64,000 bases of DNA from Stenotrophobium rhamnosiphilum (GTDB taxonomy: Bacteria > Pseudomonadota > Gammaproteobacteria > Nevskiales > Nevskiaceae): NCBI RefSeq assembly GCF_003052265.1, contig NZ_QANS01000002.1, positions 496,001-560,000 of the forward strand. The letters run 5' to 3'. The position numbers and the translations under genes were made by a program. Under the pieces are notes generated by a model, which worked only from the letters and a program-made list of their open reading frames with translations, was not told where the DNA came from and did no database searches. This document shows, in pieces, positions 58,587 through 62,765 of this stretch. The stretch's first letter is position 1. Each line of letters begins with the position of its first letter.

Positions 58587-58885
58587 GAGAAAAGCTCCTG
58601 AAGGGCTAGATAAAAAATGGGGATGAGTCTTTAAGTCCCATCGCATGCGGAGAATCTCCTACCGATCAATCTCTTTTCTGTGCGGTGGCATACACAGTGG
58701 AAAATTTCATCTCTATTCCTACAATCTTTGTGGAAATATTCGAGTAAATATTTCAACAAAGAATTTTTTTACATTTCCTATGCGTGACAGCGTACCGACC
58801 ATGAATTACTCAATCGTTAAGGTTTGCCGGTCAATTAATCCCGGGTATCTCGCAATTTCGCGAGTCGTGGGGTTCAGAGGTCACC
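58587..58885. promoter_or_regulatory. AT-rich divergent intergenic region with a half-site of the GTRCG motif
   Basis: No gene is seen in these 299 bases. The right part contains ATGCG-N6-CGTACCGACC (58780-58800), whose CGTACCGAC is identical to nine bases of the site upstream of the ferritin-like gene (59675-59683). Its spacing (6 rather than 4) is off, so it is at best a degenerate site, 85 bases before the first gene of the csbD operon. The segment 58737-58772 is strongly AT-rich and may hold the promoters. Confidence 0.4.
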
Positions 58886-59095
58886 ATGAACAAAACGATT
58901 GAACAGCGCGCTGGAAACAGCACTGACAAGTCTCCTTCGAAGTCTCAGGATATTGGGACTGACAAGGTTGCACCAGAAGTAACGCAGCCAAGCAAGACAC
59001 CTGAAGTCACTCCGACTCCAGTGATTCCAGAAATCATTAACCCAGTCTCACCTACACCAGGTGAAAGCAAACCAATTTTGGAGAAGAACTCATGA
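58886..59095 (+). CDS. Small Pro-rich hypothetical protein in the csbD operon
   Basis: A 69-residue hydrophilic, low-complexity protein with no signal peptide. The second half is a Pro/Thr/Val repeat-like stretch (TPEVTPTPVIPEI) and no Cys or Trp is present; it is probably disordered. A GAGG ribosome site precedes the ATG, and its stop overlaps the csbD start (ATGA), which supports real translation. The role is unknown; stress-protective disordered proteins are sometimes found in such settings. Confidence 0.6.
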   Translation: MNKTIEQRAGNSTDKSPSKSQDIGTDKVAPEVTQPSKTPEVTPTPVIPEIINPVSPTPGESKPILEKNS

Positions 59096-59298
59096 GTATC
59101 CCAAGCGTTGACGAAATTAAAGGTAAGTGGAAACAGCAAGTGGGCGCCGCCAAGATCGCTTGGGGCAAGCTGACCGAAGACGAACTGCTAAAGCTGGAAG
59201 GTCATCAGCAGAAGCTGGCAGGCCTCGTACAGGAACGCTACGCCGTTACGCGTGACGAAGCTGAAAAACAGGTCAAGACTTTCTTCGAGAAGAATTAA
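59092..59298 (+). CDS. CsbD-family general stress protein
   Basis: A 68-residue CsbD/YjbJ (UPF0337) protein: DEIKGKWKQQVGAAKIAWGK, LTEDELLKLEGHQQKLAGLV, and a charged C-terminal helix ending FFEKN. These small helical proteins are abundant under general stress in many bacteria; their mechanism is unknown. It overlaps the preceding Pro-rich gene by 4 bases. Confidence 0.9.
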   Translation: MSIPSVDEIKGKWKQQVGAAKIAWGKLTEDELLKLEGHQQKLAGLVQERYAVTRDEAEKQVKTFFEKN

Positions 59299-59423
59299 GA
59301 TTTAAGCAGCAAGCCATGGTCACCGTTGTTCCGTCCAAAGCTAGCAACGCGTGGCCATGGTTGCGCCTGAACTATTAGTACAACGTCTATTTATTTGTCG
59401 AAGAGTAGTTCAAAAGAATGATC

Positions 59424-59455
59424 GCGCAGTCGTTATATCGATCTGCGCTTTTTAT
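59424..59455 (+). terminator. Weak terminator-like hairpin after csbD
   Basis: GCGCAG (59424-59429) and CTGCGC (59443-59448) with a 13-base loop are followed by TTTTTATT. It is 126 bases past csbD and 24 bases before the next small gene, so it could end the csbD transcript. The stem is short. Confidence 0.35.
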
Positions 59456-59478
59456 TGACGATCAGCAGGAGAATTCAC

Positions 59479-59652
59479 ATGTCATTCGCAATCTACCTCA
59501 CCGGCGTTGCCATATTTTTAGGTGGCCTCGTATACGGTGCGATTCTGCTCAATGTTCCGCACCAATGGATTTTTGTCGGCGCTATCATCTTGCTGGGCTT
59601 ATCGATCATCACCGGCGTCAAGGTCACACGACAGAAAGATCCGACAAGTTGA
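59479..59652 (+). CDS. Small two-helix membrane protein
   Basis: A 57-residue protein with two membrane helices (AIYLTGVAIFLGGLVYGAIL and WIFVGAIILLGLSIITGVKV) and a short basic tail (TRQKDPTS). An AGGAG ribosome site lies eight bases before the ATG at 59479. The family is not certain; it is like many small stress-induced membrane proteins. It stands alone between csbD and the ferritin-like gene. Confidence 0.72.
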   Translation: MSFAIYLTGVAIFLGGLVYGAILLNVPHQWIFVGAIILLGLSIITGVKVTRQKDPTS

Positions 59653-59665
59653 GTTAGATCCTAAT

Positions 59666-59679
59666 GTGCGACGACGTAC
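59666..59679. promoter_or_regulatory. Candidate Fnr-type palindrome upstream of the ferritin-like gene (GTGCG-N4-CGTAC)
   Basis: GTGCG (59666-59670), spacer ACGA, CGTAC (59675-59679), followed by CGACAG. The right edge lies 57 bases before the ferritin-like start codon. It shares the 5-4-5 layout and consensus with the sites at 62150, 62217 and 62485. Confidence 0.5.
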
Positions 59680-59735
59680 CGACAGCGTTTTAGCCTAACG
59701 CCAATATTGAGTCTCCAATCTCACTGGCGTTGATC

Positions 59736-60287
59736 ATGAACACAAGCACAAAACCCGCGCTCACTGATATCAAGACCATTCGTGAACAGGCGCGTAGAAA
59801 CATTGAAGAAGGCGCTGTAACTTCTGGCTACTCGGCTAATCGAGAAGTCGTCATCAAACAACTGAATGATGCGCTCGCGACGGAAATAGTCTGCGTACTG
59901 CGCTACCGGCGCCATCACTTCATGGCACGTGGCATTCATGCTCAGGCCATCGCTGCCGAATTCCTGGTCCACTCAAATGAAGAGCAAGGCCATGCAGACA
60001 TGATTGCTGAACGTATTGTTCAGCTCGGTGGCGATCCGGATTTTTCTCCAGAAAGCCTCACGGTGCGCAGCCATGCCGAATACATCGCTGCTACCAACCT
60101 GTCCGACATGATCAAGGAAAATCTCATAGCCGAGCGCATTGCCATCGACAGCTATCGAGAACTGATCCAGTACATCGGCACAGAAGATCCAACCACCAGC
60201 CAAATGCTGAAGGGCATCCTCGCCGTGGAAGAAAAGCACGCAGACGAGCTGGCTGACTTGTTGGTGGATTTACCCAGCAAGGTTTAA
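59736..60287 (+). CDS. Bacterioferritin-like ferritin-domain protein
   Basis: A 183-residue four-helix protein of the ferritin superfamily. Iron-site residues are in helices ALATEIVCVLRYRRHHFMA (Glu), SNEEQGHADMIAERI (Glu, His), LIAERIAIDSYRELI (Glu) and AVEEKHADELADLLV (Glu, His), i.e. a complete diiron centre. It is longer at the N-terminus than classical bacterioferritin. Such proteins store iron or detoxify peroxide during stress. A TTG two codons upstream is less likely than the ATG at 59736. A GTGCG palindrome lies upstream. Confidence 0.85.
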   Translation: MNTSTKPALTDIKTIREQARRNIEEGAVTSGYSANREVVIKQLNDALATEIVCVLRYRRHHFMARGIHAQAIAAEFLVHSNEEQGHADMIAERIVQLGGDPDFSPESLTVRSHAEYIAATNLSDMIKENLIAERIAIDSYRELIQYIGTEDPTTSQMLKGILAVEEKHADELADLLVDLPSKV

Positions 60288-60294
60288 TCGTCCA

Positions 60295-60329
60295 AGAAAA
60301 AACCCGTTGTCGCATGGGCGCAACGGGTT
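60295..60329 (-). terminator. Rho-independent terminator on the minus strand
   Basis: AACCCGTTG (60301-60309) and CAACGGGTT (60321-60329) form a 9-bp stem. On the minus strand it is followed by a run of T (60300-60295). It ends either the Crp/Fnr transcript from 60501 or the candidate small RNA just upstream. Confidence 0.8.
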
Positions 60330-60425
60330 AAATGTGAATCCGGTTGAACCATCGCATCTGGGGGAGACCCGAATTGGTTCCAGGGGGAGACGGATTCTGA
60401 GTGATTAGCTCAGAGTTCAGGCTAT
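60297..60425 (-). ncRNA. Candidate small RNA with two C-rich loops
   Basis: Read on the minus strand, a 5' hairpin (TCTGAG/CTCAGA, about 60415-60394) is followed by an outer stem GAATCCG/CGGATTC (60397-60391 with 60342-60336). This encloses an inner stem GAACCA/TGGTTC (60380-60375 with 60351-60346). The motif TCTCCCCC occurs twice, once in the bulge and once in the inner loop (60390-60383 and 60367-60360). A rho-independent terminator ends the element. Unpaired C-rich motifs of this kind pair with G-rich ribosome sites in known small RNAs, such as those of xanthomonads and Neisseria. It could also be the 3' UTR of the Crp/Fnr gene at 60501. No promoter is certain. Confidence 0.5.
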
Positions 60426-60500
60426 GCCCTTTAAAACGACCGCTCTGTTCGGCACCCAACATATAAGAAAATAATTGCTCGGCCATTCTCTAGGATATTT

Positions 60501-61208
60501 TCAGGAGAATAGCTGGGCGTAATCTTGCTTGGCTTCACCGTAGCACTCGCAAGAGGCAGCTTCTAAGCCCTTGCGATTGATGATGCTGATCGCTCCACGG
60601 CTATAGCTGATGAGCTGCTTACGCTGCAGGCCACCGGCAGCGATAGTTACCGCGCTCCGGCGAACCCCCAACATGTCCGCCAGAAAGTTATGCGTAAGAT
60701 GAAATTGCTCTGCATGCGAGCGGTCATGCGTTTCCAATAGCCAACGTGCCAGTCTCGCATCTACCTCGTGGAAGCGTGTACAAGCCGCGCTCTGCGAAAG
60801 CTGCGCCATCAACACAAACAGATAGCGTCCAATGATTTTTTGAAGCGCAGGACTTTGCTGCATTTCTTTTCGGAGTTGCACCGCAGACAAGCGCAATGCA
60901 TCTCCTGCACCCTGCACCTTGCTTTGCAAGGGCACGGTGTTAACACCCAGTATCATCGTGGCGCCCAACATTCCTTCGTTGCCGATCAGTCCCATTTCCA
61001 AAGGCGGATGCTTTTGTACTGTGGCAACCAGAGAGAGAAATCCGTTTAATGGAAAGTAAACATGACGGTAAGCTTCGCCCGGCTCACACAGCACGGTTCC
61101 AAATTCCAAGTTCACGGGTTCGCAACGCTCAAATACCCGGCGCCGCTCTTTTGATGGCAAAGCACTGATCAAACGATTTGTAACAGATGGCGGTATTGCA
61201 ACTGGCAC
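60501..61208 (-). CDS. Crp/Fnr-family transcriptional regulator (paralogue 1)
   Basis: A 235-residue regulator. The N-terminal cyclic-nucleotide-binding-type beta-roll (about residues 20-125: GTVLCEPGEAYRHVYFPLNG, MGLIGNEGMLGATMILGV) lacks the Cys cluster of Fnr and the canonical cAMP pocket. A dimer helix follows, then an HTH_CRP domain whose recognition region is MLGVRRSAVTIAAGGLQ. This differs from Crp (RETVGR) and Fnr (ETISR). The signal sensed is unknown. A nearby paralogue at 61340 is about equally long and shares FPxxxxxSL, GxEGxxGxxxxxG and CECYGxAK-type end motifs. Confidence 0.87.
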   Translation of the reverse strand: MPVAIPPSVTNRLISALPSKERRRVFERCEPVNLEFGTVLCEPGEAYRHVYFPLNGFLSLVATVQKHPPLEMGLIGNEGMLGATMILGVNTVPLQSKVQGAGDALRLSAVQLRKEMQQSPALQKIIGRYLFVLMAQLSQSAACTRFHEVDARLARWLLETHDRSHAEQFHLTHNFLADMLGVRRSAVTIAAGGLQRKQLISYSRGAISIINRKGLEAASCECYGEAKQDYAQLFS

Positions 61209-61301
61209 ATCATTTCTCCGCAGCGGAGGAAAGCCGAAGCAATGGCACGGGATAGAAGCTGAAACTGTCCCGATCCCTCAGTATGCAGGTTCTGTAGCAA
61301 A

Positions 61302-61329
61302 GTGCTCTGTGCGTTAAACCCCAGAGCAC
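61302..61329 (-). terminator. Hairpin between the two Crp/Fnr genes
   Basis: GTGCTCTG (61302-61309) and CAGAGCAC (61322-61329) are perfect complements around a 12-base loop, 11 bases beyond the stop of the upstream paralogue. A short TTTGC follows on the minus strand. It may separate the two transcription units partially. Confidence 0.45.
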
Positions 61330-61339
61330 CCGGGCTCTC

Positions 61340-62077
61340 TCAAGCTATTGACGCATTCGCAGAAGTAAGGGTGTAAGGAAGTAGACGATCCGTCTCTTTC
61401 TTAACCACTGCGTAGCACTCGCAACTTAGCTTCTCGAGCTTCGGCCGATCCAGCACTGTGATTTGTCCACGGCTATATTCGATGACGCCGAGTTTCTGTA
61501 GTTTTCCTGCGGCGTCAGTGACGCCTTCTCTGCGCACACCAAGCATGTTGGCGATCAACTCTTGAGTCATCGTGAGTTGATTGGTCGGTAGGCGATCCAA
61601 AGACAGCAACAGCCAGCGGCACAACTGCTGATCAACAGAGTGATGTCGATTACAGACTGCGGTTTGCGCCATCTGCGTGATGAGTGCCTGCGTATAACGC
61701 AGCATTAGTAGCAACATCTCGCCATGACGATTGAATTCATCTTTGAGTCGCTGCCCTAACAAGCGATAAGCAAAGCCCGCGCTCTGCACAATCGCGCGAC
61801 TCGGCGTGCTCTCGCCGCCCATAAATAGTGCGACGCCAATGAGTCCTTCATGACCGACGACAGAAATTTCTGCTGAAGCACCGCTCTCCATCACATAAAG
61901 CAAAGAGATGATGGAATCGGTAGGAAAATAAACGTGCCGCATCGCGTCGCCGGATTCATACAAAACCTTGCCCAATGGCATCTCGACTAGCTCAAGGTGC
62001 GGTAACAAACGCGTTTGCACTTCAGCTGGCAAAGCAGCCAAGAGACGGTTTTGATGCGGATTATGCGAATGGGGCAT
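61340..62077 (-). CDS. Crp/Fnr-family transcriptional regulator (paralogue 2)
   Basis: A 245-residue regulator with the same build as its neighbour: beta-roll (PLGKVLYESGDAMRHVYFPT, EISVVGHEGLIGVALFMGG), dimer helix, and HTH_CRP with recognition region MLGVRREGVTDAAGKLQ, ending KLSCECYAVVKKETDRLL. No Fe-S cysteines of Fnr are seen at the N-terminus. A long palindrome (62146-62167) lies 69 bases upstream of its start, which suggests autoregulation or cross-regulation by paralogue 1. It is divergent from a small membrane-protein gene. Confidence 0.87.
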   Translation of the reverse strand: MPHSHNPHQNRLLAALPAEVQTRLLPHLELVEMPLGKVLYESGDAMRHVYFPTDSIISLLYVMESGASAEISVVGHEGLIGVALFMGGESTPSRAIVQSAGFAYRLLGQRLKDEFNRHGEMLLLMLRYTQALITQMAQTAVCNRHHSVDQQLCRWLLLSLDRLPTNQLTMTQELIANMLGVRREGVTDAAGKLQKLGVIEYSRGQITVLDRPKLEKLSCECYAVVKKETDRLLPYTLTSANASIA

Positions 62078-62145
62078 TTAGGAGCTGCTCAAAAGGGGTG
62101 GAACAAGACCACCAAGAGAGCAGCATACTCTCACCATACTTCTCT

Positions 62146-62167
62146 ATATGTACGATGCCGTACATAT
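62146..62167. promoter_or_regulatory. Palindrome upstream of Crp/Fnr paralogue 2 (GTACG-N4-CGTAC)
   Basis: ATATGTACG (62146-62154), spacer ATGC and CGTACATAT (62159-62167) form a perfect 9-bp dyad. The inner GTACG-N4-CGTAC has the same geometry and the same ATGC spacer as the site at 62217. Confidence 0.6.
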
Positions 62168-62216
62168 CTTTCTTGTGCCGGCCATATAAGGCTTAGCAAG
62201 CATTCGGACCGCTTAG

Positions 62217-62230
62217 GTGCGATGCCGCAC
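62217..62230. promoter_or_regulatory. Palindrome upstream of the 48-residue membrane-protein gene (GTGCG-N4-CGCAC)
   Basis: GTGCG (62217-62221), spacer ATGC and CGCAC (62226-62230), followed by AGACCCT, lie 68 bases before the start codon at 62299. The flanking CGCACAGACC matches CGTACAGACC at 62494-62503. Confidence 0.55.
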
Positions 62231-62298
62231 AGACCCTCGCTTCCAGTCTGGCCCACTCTAAATGCTCTAACAAACTTTAAATATTCGGAGAGCTCAAC

Positions 62299-62445
62299 AT
62301 GCTCGCAACAATCGCTATCGTATTACTCGTTCTGTGGGCACTAGGCATGGTGTCTTCCTACACGATCGGTGGATTCATCCATATTCTTTTGGTCGTGGCC
62401 ATTATCGTCGTCCTTATTCGCGTCATCCAAGGCCGAAGAATCTGA
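62299..62445 (+). CDS. Small membrane protein of the lmo0937 family
   Basis: A 48-residue protein (MLATIAIVLLVLWALG, then GGFIHILLVVAIIVVLIRV, ending QGRRI). It has two membrane helices separated by the SSYTIGGFIH turn, which is the pattern of the lmo0937 family of small membrane proteins. A GGAG ribosome site lies nine bases before the ATG. Function unknown; such proteins are typically induced by envelope or desiccation stress. Confidence 0.8.
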   Translation: MLATIAIVLLVLWALGMVSSYTIGGFIHILLVVAIIVVLIRVIQGRRI

Positions 62446-62451
62446 TGTAAA

Positions 62452-62498
62452 GCGCCGTACGTTTTTGATCGCACAGCGATTAACGTACGGCGCCGTAC
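62452..62498. promoter_or_regulatory. Hairpin and GTACG-N4-CGTAC palindrome upstream of a small gene
   Basis: GCGCCGTACGTT (62452-62463) and AACGTACGGCGC (62482-62493) are perfect 12-bp arms around an 18-base loop. Overlapping the right arm, GTACG (62485-62489), spacer GCGC and CGTAC (62494-62498) form the fourth copy of the regulatory dyad. It lies 57 bases before the next start codon. Confidence 0.55.
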
Positions 62499-62555
62499 AG
62501 ACCTTGCCCTGAACAATACGCATCATGGACACGGCCACATTTTTAGGAGCCCGTC

Positions 62556-62765
62556 ATGAATCAGAGCAAACATCCAACTGCCGTAAATAACTCACCGAAG
62601 CAGCACATGGCGGTCAATATGTCCGCAAGTGAAATTATCGAAGGCATGTTTAGCGTTTGGCCAAAATCCGAGCCAGTTGAATCAAAACAAGAAGTGCCGA
62701 CCTCGACCGCCGCTAAAGGCGATGACGATGTCATGAGTACACCGGCCAAGAAAACCAGGCCGTGA
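62556..62765 (+). CDS. Small hydrophilic hypothetical protein
   Basis: A 69-residue protein without signal or membrane helix, rich in Ser, Thr, Pro, Lys and Glu, with one ordered-looking segment (NMSASEIIEGMFSVWP). An AGGAG ribosome site lies six bases before the ATG. It is preceded by a GTACG palindrome in the same layout as the ferritin-like and membrane-protein genes, so it is probably a member of the same regulon. I recognise no family. Confidence 0.6.
   Translation: MNQSKHPTAVNNSPKQHMAVNMSASEIIEGMFSVWPKSEPVESKQEVPTSTAAKGDDDVMSTPAKKTRP

What the first reader, a model, noticed from the sequence alone, without database searches (positions are those of the whole stretch)
60297..60425. Candidate small RNA with two CUCCCCC loops and its own terminator
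On the minus strand, nested complementary segments (GAATCCG/CGGATTC enclosing GAACCA/TGGTTC) hold two TCTCCCCC copies in unpaired places, a further hairpin lies 5', and a rho-independent terminator lies 3'. C-rich single-stranded loops are a feature of trans-acting small RNAs that block G-rich ribosome sites. Its place between a ferritin-like gene and a Crp/Fnr gene suggests a link to the same stress response. A 3' UTR origin from the Crp/Fnr mRNA is possible.
Basis: partly seen in the sequence, partly recalled or inferred. Interest (0 to 1): 0.65.

Follow-up and report, generated by a model that had tools for sequence, protein, structure and literature searches.

The report
Stress-regulator-linked C-rich small RNA
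Next to a stress-type regulator gene lies a gene for a short folded RNA, found again in several relatives with matched base changes and with the same regulator-type binding site in front of it, so it is probably a small regulatory RNA not yet named, switched on by that kind of regulator.

Summary
The minus-strand RNA (about 60412 to 60297, 116 nt) has a 5' hairpin, a 7-bp outer stem, an inner stem, two TCTCCCCC tracts and a terminator. Reading beside related regulator genes and covariance models together gave 18 members, mostly in Nevskiaceae. In 16 aligned members 88.8% of cells pair and 23 of 28 pairs change on both sides; C-tracts are mostly unpaired (0.80 against 0.30).

In 16 a -10-like hexamer starts exactly 19 nt after it, putting its centre near -41.5, as at Crp/Fnr class II promoters. 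The same motif precedes the window's ferritin-like gene and second Crp/Fnr gene.

Best reading: a new sRNA family with its own Crp/Fnr-type promoter, part of a stress regulon, probably repressing mRNAs with G-rich ribosome sites as Xanthomonas sX13 does. It is not sX13: this genome has a separate sX13-like RNA beside polA. Expression, activation and targets are unproven, and the window copy alone scores weakly with models built without it.

The parts
60297..60412 (-). proposed sRNA gene, about 116 nt (start inferred from promoter spacing, end from the terminator)
   Evidence: fold z -4.74; model R2, built without it, ranks it first in the 64 kb window, E 6.8e-5
60444..60461 (-). operator palindrome TGTTGGGTGCCGAACAGA (1 mismatch to TGTnCGnnnnCGnACAGA), centre about -41.5 from the inferred start
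60419..60424 (-). -10-like hexamer TAGCCT, starting 19 nt after the operator
   Evidence: A2 and T6 invariant in the promoter alignments
60398..60412 (-). 5' hairpin TGAG-7-CTCA
   Evidence: MFE and centroid
60391..60397 (-). outer stem P1, 5' arm GAATCCG
60336..60342 (-). outer stem P1, 3' arm CGGATTC
60383..60390 (-). C-rich tract 1 (TCTCCCCC) in the bulge between P1 and P2
   Evidence: unpaired in the fold
60360..60367 (-). C-rich tract 2 (TCTCCCCC) at the apical loop
   Evidence: its C bases form the loop
60297..60329 (-). intrinsic terminator with U6
   Evidence: helix 4, 97.4% of cells paired
60501..61208 (-). Crp/Fnr-family regulator gene upstream of the sRNA; orthologues precede the sRNA in several relatives
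   Evidence: PF13545 E 4.1e-14
59739..60287 (+). ferritin-like (Dps/bacterioferritin-type) gene, convergent
   Evidence: PF00210 E 5.4e-30; one search matches are below NCBIfam cut-offs
59665..59682 (+). same operator before the ferritin-like gene; hexamer CAATAT at 59702-59707
62147..62164 (-). same operator before the second Crp/Fnr gene (61340-62077); hexamer TATGCT 19 nt on
62484..62501 (+). same operator before a 69-aa ORF (62556-62765); hexamer CATCAT 19 nt on

Best explanation
The locus encodes an independently transcribed small RNA of about 116 nt, a member of a family that Rfam 15 does not hold. A Crp/Fnr-family regulator (the adjacent gene or one of its paralogues) binds the palindrome centred near -41.5 and activates transcription by the class II mode, together with the ferritin-like gene and other stress genes that carry the same site. 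The RNA ends at its own terminator and exposes two UCUCCCCC tracts, which pair with G-rich sequences at ribosome-binding sites and repress those mRNAs. Shown by sequence: the conserved fold with covariation, the mostly unpaired C-tracts (predicted), the terminator, and the operator with near-fixed -10 spacing. Inferred: the transcript, activation by this regulator, and target repression.
For: Fold: z -4.74. Homology: R2, built from 8 sequences without the window, ranks the feature first in the window, E 6.8e-5, next hit 0.081. Covariation: 16 aligned members, 88.8% of cells paired, 23 of 28 pairs with two-sided changes, 0 of 500 shuffles as high; sliding the partners gives 27 to 43%; on a sequence-only MAFFT alignment of 8 members 89.6% and 14 of 28. 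C-tracts: unpaired probability 0.80 against 0.30 elsewhere and 0.53 in shuffles. Promoter: motif at 0 to 2 mismatches upstream of 18 of 18, hexamer with A2 and T6 at offset 19 in 16 of 18, no other offset above 4 of 18. The motif goes with this regulator type: in 80 named Crp/Fnr loci 181 matches in 69 loci against 5 for the reversed pattern, hexamer at offset 19 in 74 of 181, next best 31 at offset 18; in the own genome 39 matches against 15 for the control, 10 of the 39 within about 6 kb at the end of the window. Co-occurrence: sRNA in 10 of 35 family genomes with a Crp/Fnr match and 0 of 23 without (p 0.0035, relatedness ignored).
Against: No RNA data. R1 (3 sequences) did not find the window feature. 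Its R2 score, 21.9 bits, lies in the range of hits without the motif: G045 31.8, G005 31.6, an own-genome hit 23.8; in the whole-genome R2 search it was not listed at all (150 of 566 candidates scored). R3 finds it at 64.8 bits but was trained on it. Six members (G024, G026, G061b, G071, L190, window) scored weakly when first found and were accepted partly for their motif or Crp/Fnr neighbour, so 18 of 18 is partly circular. C-tract number in the loops is not above dinucleotide shuffles (25 against 23.7, P 0.38); exposure beats 95% of shuffles in only 5 of 18 members, not in the window copy (0.13). The adjacent Crp/Fnr gene itself has only a 3-mismatch site upstream (61306-61323). The only held genome of the same genus has neither a match to the regulator nor a member.
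Confidence: 0.74

Rival explanations
1. The RNA is the 3' UTR of the Crp/Fnr mRNA: the stem-loops end and stabilise that mRNA, and any small RNA is a processing product.
For: It lies directly downstream of the Crp/Fnr stop codon here and in L034, L039, L042, L043, L178, L190, L244, and its terminator would also end read-through from that gene.
Against: All 18 members have an operator, and 16 a -10 hexamer at fixed spacing, between the upstream gene and the RNA. For L112, L136 and L262 no Crp/Fnr ORF was seen directly upstream.
Confidence: 0.12
2. A cis-antisense RNA to the 3' end of the convergent ferritin-like mRNA.
For: The genes converge, and the plus strand has no U-tract after the shared stem, so ferritin transcripts could run into the sRNA region.
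Against: The convergent ferritin-like gene is not kept: in the Nevskia-type loci L109, L111 and L130 a different ORF, alike in all three, follows on the same strand, while fold and C-tracts are kept.
Confidence: 0.05
3. A small coding gene rather than a regulatory RNA.
For: A 52-aa ORF spans 60328-60486.
Against: That ORF starts upstream of the inferred transcription start. The longest ORFs starting inside the 18 members share no position, length or visible sequence in the part printed, and the base changes preserve pairs.
Confidence: 0.02
4. The RNA is real and regulated as proposed but acts by titrating a protein or another RNA, not by blocking ribosome sites (not exclusive of the first half of the best explanation).
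For: Repeated single-stranded tracts can serve as sponges (general knowledge); the C-tracts vary in length between members.
Against: sX13 with C-rich loops represses through G-rich motifs (PMC3771888, abstract and passages); GGGGGAGA 2 to 10 bases before ATG has 8 matches in the own genome against 0 for the reversed and 2 for a permuted pattern.
Confidence: 0.2

Closest known systems
sX13 (RF02232) of Xanthomonadaceae
   Same: Short, terminated RNA with C-rich single-stranded tracts; in sX13 these repress mRNAs with G-rich motifs near the start codon (PMC3771888, abstract and passages).
   Different: No sX13 match here up to E 10. sX13 has three hairpins with C-rich apical loops and lies downstream of polA (same paper); this RNA has a bulged long hairpin and a Crp/Fnr-type promoter. 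The own genome has a separate anti-hemB/sX13-like RNA next to polA (L149).
anti-hemB (RF02837) and Betaproteobacteria toxic sRNA (RF02278)
   Same: Toxic sRNAs of Burkholderia have CU-rich unpaired stretches and two hairpins (PMC5688073, passages); both Rfam models end in a terminator-like hairpin with U-run; weak scores here, 19.0 and 19.9 bits.
   Different: Far below the gathering scores of 49.5 and 50; the aligned part is mainly the terminator and a few C-tract bases.
sRNAs under Crp/Fnr-family control (FnrS, AniS, PhrS: recalled; NsrR1 beside NtcA, a CRP/FNR protein: start of an abstract in the listing)
   Same: An sRNA placed under, or studied beside, a Crp/Fnr-family regulator.
   Different: The operator here (TGTnCGnnnnCGnACA) differs from the recalled FNR/ANR site TTGAT-N4-ATCAA and Crp site TGTGA-N6-TCACA; no sequence kinship was tested beyond Rfam.

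Membership tests
sX13 (RF02232) | covariance model score at or above gathering (50 bits) | tested here: not met
   not among the matches up to E 10
sX13 (RF02232) | location downstream of polA | tested here: not met
   lies downstream of a Crp/Fnr gene; the polA-linked candidate of this genome is L149, 35.9 of 50 bits to sX13
sX13 (RF02232) | C-rich single-stranded tracts | tested here: met
   two TCTCCCCC tracts, predicted unpaired probability 0.85
sX13 (RF02232) | represses mRNAs with G-rich motifs | not testable with these tools
   only candidate sites listed
anti-hemB (RF02837) / Betaproteobacteria toxic sRNA (RF02278) | gathering score | tested here: not met
   19.0 of 49.5 and 19.9 of 50 bits
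Crp/Fnr-activated sRNA (functional class) | operator centred near -41.5 from the start, like the family's sites elsewhere | tested here: met
   the start itself is inferred from the hexamer, not measured
Crp/Fnr-activated sRNA (functional class) | expression depends on the regulator | not testable with these tools
   co-occurrence only: 10 of 35 against 0 of 23 genomes
trans-encoded sRNA | discrete terminated transcript with conserved, covarying structure | tested here: inconclusive
   structure and terminator met; transcript not testable

The most novel reading that the evidence does not exclude
A regulator and sRNA module: a Crp/Fnr subfamily with its own operator TGTnCGnnnnCGnACA activates both stress proteins and a C-rich sRNA. 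That sRNA carries the same UCUCCCCC seed as the polA-linked sX13-like RNA of the same genome, so stress adds a second, inducible RNA onto the same set of G-rich ribosome sites.
Probability: 0.3. Interest if true: 0.65.

Novelty: new variant of a known kind. Interest (0 to 1): 0.55.

Why it matters
If right, it adds an unnamed sRNA family with a working covariance model and a predicted upstream regulator in Nevskiaceae and a few other Gammaproteobacteria. It also gives a predicted operator and a first list of controlled genes for a Crp/Fnr subfamily that occurs with many paralogues beside ferritin-like, OsmC-like and small membrane proteins, so that its signal and role can be tested through one reporter.

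Tried and rejected
DNA search with the 161-bp region: 2 of 61 genomes, one being the own genome; so covariance models were used. A first genome-contig scan with the single Crp/Fnr protein found nothing; an alignment gave 454 relatives, of which 80 were kept. RF02278 as a search family matched 55 of 61 relatives at E up to 1, none over its cut-off, and 8 of 14 control genomes, so it was dropped as noise.

Model hits not counted as members: 18 of 21 inspected hits (14 without any motif match up to 3 mismatches; L148, L163 and L167 with 3 mismatches; L164 with 2 mismatches but at -15, without promoter layout). L149 is among the 18: a C-rich RNA of another family. In one search, 14 of 15 inspected genome hits had no motif and were not counted, nor were 4 named ones (L252 and L237 without motif, L220 with 3 mismatches, L206 with 1 mismatch but only 16.6 bits). 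Of the 49 matches, the lower-scoring ones without a stored locus were not all inspected. In one search, L113 (G006, R1 E 7.9e-5), L116, L117, L131 and L132 had no motif. The class-wide search scored 9 candidates per genome and missed the own locus, so its 1 of 369 is a lower bound. protein 4 (window 62301-62444) was read out of frame; the right protein was scanned. The target search gives 8 matches at 7 places, 5 before an ORF of at least 70 aa; the number is small, L149 shares the seed, and G-rich sites are ordinary ribosome sites.

Literature. Searches returned 0 papers; for the others only the listed rows were seen (20 of 3,287; 67: 3 of 3; 69: 11 of 11; 79: 10 of 9,360; 86: 8 of 21; 87: 10 of 121; 89: 5 of 201; 92: 8 of 83), and none of those titles is about this RNA. 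RedB, another CRP/FNR protein, has a non-palindromic site (PMC9603854, passages), so it was not pursued. Subscription papers are not in the library.

Full report
What is there. Folded from the likely start, 60412, the RNA forms a 5' hairpin, a 7-bp outer stem P1 enclosing an inner stem P2, and a bulged 12-bp terminator stem with U6; energy -42.5 kcal/mol, z -4.74, 0 of 200 shuffles as stable. One TCTCCCCC sits in the long 5' bulge between P1 and P2, the other at the apical loop. The core without the terminator is unremarkable alone (z -1.99) and the other strand also folds (z -3.56), so the case rests on comparison. Rfam has nothing above gathering for this region.

Where it lies. The RNA follows a Crp/Fnr-family gene (60501-61208) and converges with a ferritin-like gene (59739-60287). 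I therefore take the window's family to be Nevskiaceae (Gammaproteobacteria; Nevskia soli looked up); the genus was not identified.

Homologues. Reading downstream of orthologous Crp/Fnr genes gave four clear counterparts, in G026, G061, G067 and G070. Model R1, from three of them, found G070b, G070c and G036 at E 1.8e-17 or better in 58 family genomes, and G071 and G061b only weakly (0.005 and 0.019), accepted for their motif and, for G071, its Crp/Fnr neighbour. R2, from eight sequences without the window, ranked the window feature first in the 64 kb (E 6.8e-5) and found members in G060 (another family of the order), G077 and, weakly, G024; in Methylohalomonas lacus (L244), two MAGs (L178, L190) and the named record of G026 (L180), that is 5 of 80 Crp/Fnr loci at E below 1e-4, L226 being G061 again; and in G407, in another family of the class. 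R3 added G073. In all I count 18 members. In one search, 14 hits of 41 bits or more fall in 11 of 100 genomes, 13 of them in R3's training set; the next hit is at 31.4 bits.

Covariation. On 16 members 88.8% of 421 cells pair, 23 of 28 pairs have a change on both sides, and the score 0.471 exceeds all 500 shuffles; sliding the partners by 1 to 3 columns drops pairing to 27-43%. That alignment was fitted to the model. On a sequence-only MAFFT alignment of eight members (structure derived from it, which favours it over slid versions) the figures are 89.6%, 14 of 28, sliding 27-43%; one measure, further pair types, is reached by 12 of 500 shuffles. P1 and the terminator carry the signal; P2 is variable.

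The C-tracts. Unpaired probability over C-tract bases averages 0.80 against 0.30 for other bases of the same RNAs and 0.53 for C-tracts in shuffled sequences; all 18 members exceed their shuffled mean, but only 5 of 18 exceed 95% of their 40 shuffles, and the window copy does not (0.13). The number of CTCC/CCCC tracts in the loop region, 25, is what dinucleotide shuffles give (23.7, P 0.38), though above mononucleotide shuffles (16.2, 0 of 1000); one member, G061b, has none by that definition.

The promoter. Upstream of each RNA lies TGTnCGnnnnCGnACAGA with 0 to 2 mismatches (18 of 18). In 16 of 18 a hexamer with A at position 2 and T at position 6 begins exactly 19 nt after it; the best other offset has 4 of 18. 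In the two exceptions, G061b and L178, the hexamer read by eye starts one base later. MAFFT placed six promoters and eleven (nine members, the ferritin-like gene and the second Crp/Fnr gene) with no gap between palindrome and hexamer. Counting back from the hexamer, the centre is near -41.5, the class II position of Crp/Fnr activators (established knowledge, recalled). Circularity: six members (G024, G026, G061b, G071, L190, window) scored weakly when first found and were accepted partly on motif or neighbour. The cleaner test is the strong hits of models that contain no promoter: R1, G070b, G070c and G036; R2 at 36.7 bits or more, G060, G077, G407, L244 and L178; R3, G073: 9 of 9 have the motif. 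That threshold was set afterwards: R2 hits at 31.8 (G045) and 31.6 bits (G005) lack the motif, and the window's own 21.9 bits lies below them.

The motif goes with this regulator type. In 80 named Crp/Fnr loci it occurs 181 times (palindromes can count on both strands) in 69 loci, the reversed pattern 5 times; the hexamer sits at offset 19 in 74 of 181, next best offset 18 with 31. In the own genome there are 39 matches with at most one mismatch against 15 for the control; 10 of the 39 fall within about 6 kb at the end of the window and just beyond. Of 30 sites read (of 39), 11 have the hexamer at 19; among them are sites before two Crp/Fnr genes, the ferritin-like gene, the sRNA, an OsmC-like protein (PF02566), an FGase-like protein (PF05013, below cut-off) and small proteins; some of the 11 are the reverse strand of another site or lie in a reading frame. 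A DUF5670 small protein follows a site without that spacing. The adjacent Crp/Fnr gene itself has only a 3-mismatch candidate at 61306-61323. The sRNA (41 bits or more) occurs in 10 of 35 family genomes with a Crp/Fnr match and 0 of 23 without (p 0.0035, ignoring relatedness).

How it most likely works. Shown by sequence: conserved fold, predicted unpaired C-tracts, terminator, operator and spacing. Inferred: a Crp/Fnr protein, responding to an unknown signal, activates the RNA with the stress genes; the RNA pairs through UCUCCCCC with GGGGGAGA at ribosome sites. In the own genome GGGGGAGA stands 2 to 10 bases before ATG in 8 matches at 7 places, against 0 for the reversed pattern and 2 for a permuted one. 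Five places precede an ORF of at least 70 aa: a 464-aa protein with a lipoprotein-like start, a DUF4266 protein, an S15-peptidase-like protein, a WS/DGAT acyltransferase and an SDR enzyme. By eye, the WS/DGAT leader matches 12 bases of tract 2 and its flanks and the SDR leader 11 bases of tract 1 and its flank. This is suggestive only, since the sites were chosen for complementarity.

Comparison. sX13 works with C-rich loops on G-rich motifs and lies downstream of polA (PMC3771888, abstract and passages). The own genome has an RNA next to a DNA polymerase I gene with C-rich loops, including GGTCTCCCCCTGAT around the terminator loop: L149, 44.3 of 49.5 bits to anti-hemB and 35.9 of 50 to sX13, both below gathering. 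The window RNA matches neither family at gathering, so it may work like sX13 but is not sX13. I found no paper on it in the listings seen (Tried and rejected).

Verdict. A real, conserved sRNA gene with a Crp/Fnr-type promoter is likely; its targets are a hypothesis. A new family of a known kind, of moderate interest.

Noticed in passing
L149 (own genome G000:C16:54082-54177, +): A second C-rich terminated RNA next to polA, similar to anti-hemB (44.3 of 49.5 bits) and to sX13 (35.9 of 50 bits), below both gathering scores; it hints that these two Rfam families are related and that such RNAs extend to this family.
   Followed up: partly
window 58677-62501: Operator-like palindromes with at most one mismatch at 58677 (-), 59665 (+), 60444 (-), 62147/62149, 62216 (+) and 62484 (+), in a stretch with CsbD-like, ferritin-like, OmpA-like and small proteins; more sites lie just beyond the window (own contig C15, 560166 and 560675).
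   Followed up: partly
own genome G000: Seven matches to the Crp/Fnr protein in one genome, several with the same operator within about 200 bases upstream, suggesting mutual or self regulation among paralogues.
   Followed up: partly
L109:1818-2171, L130:656-1015, L111:943-1323: In these Nevskia-type loci the sRNA is followed by alike small ORFs (starting MIR.H) of unknown function; in L226 a second operator with hexamer TATCTT lies downstream of the sRNA.
   Followed up: no
G070 (L111, L130, L136): One genome carries three members of the sRNA family, each with its own operator.
   Followed up: partly
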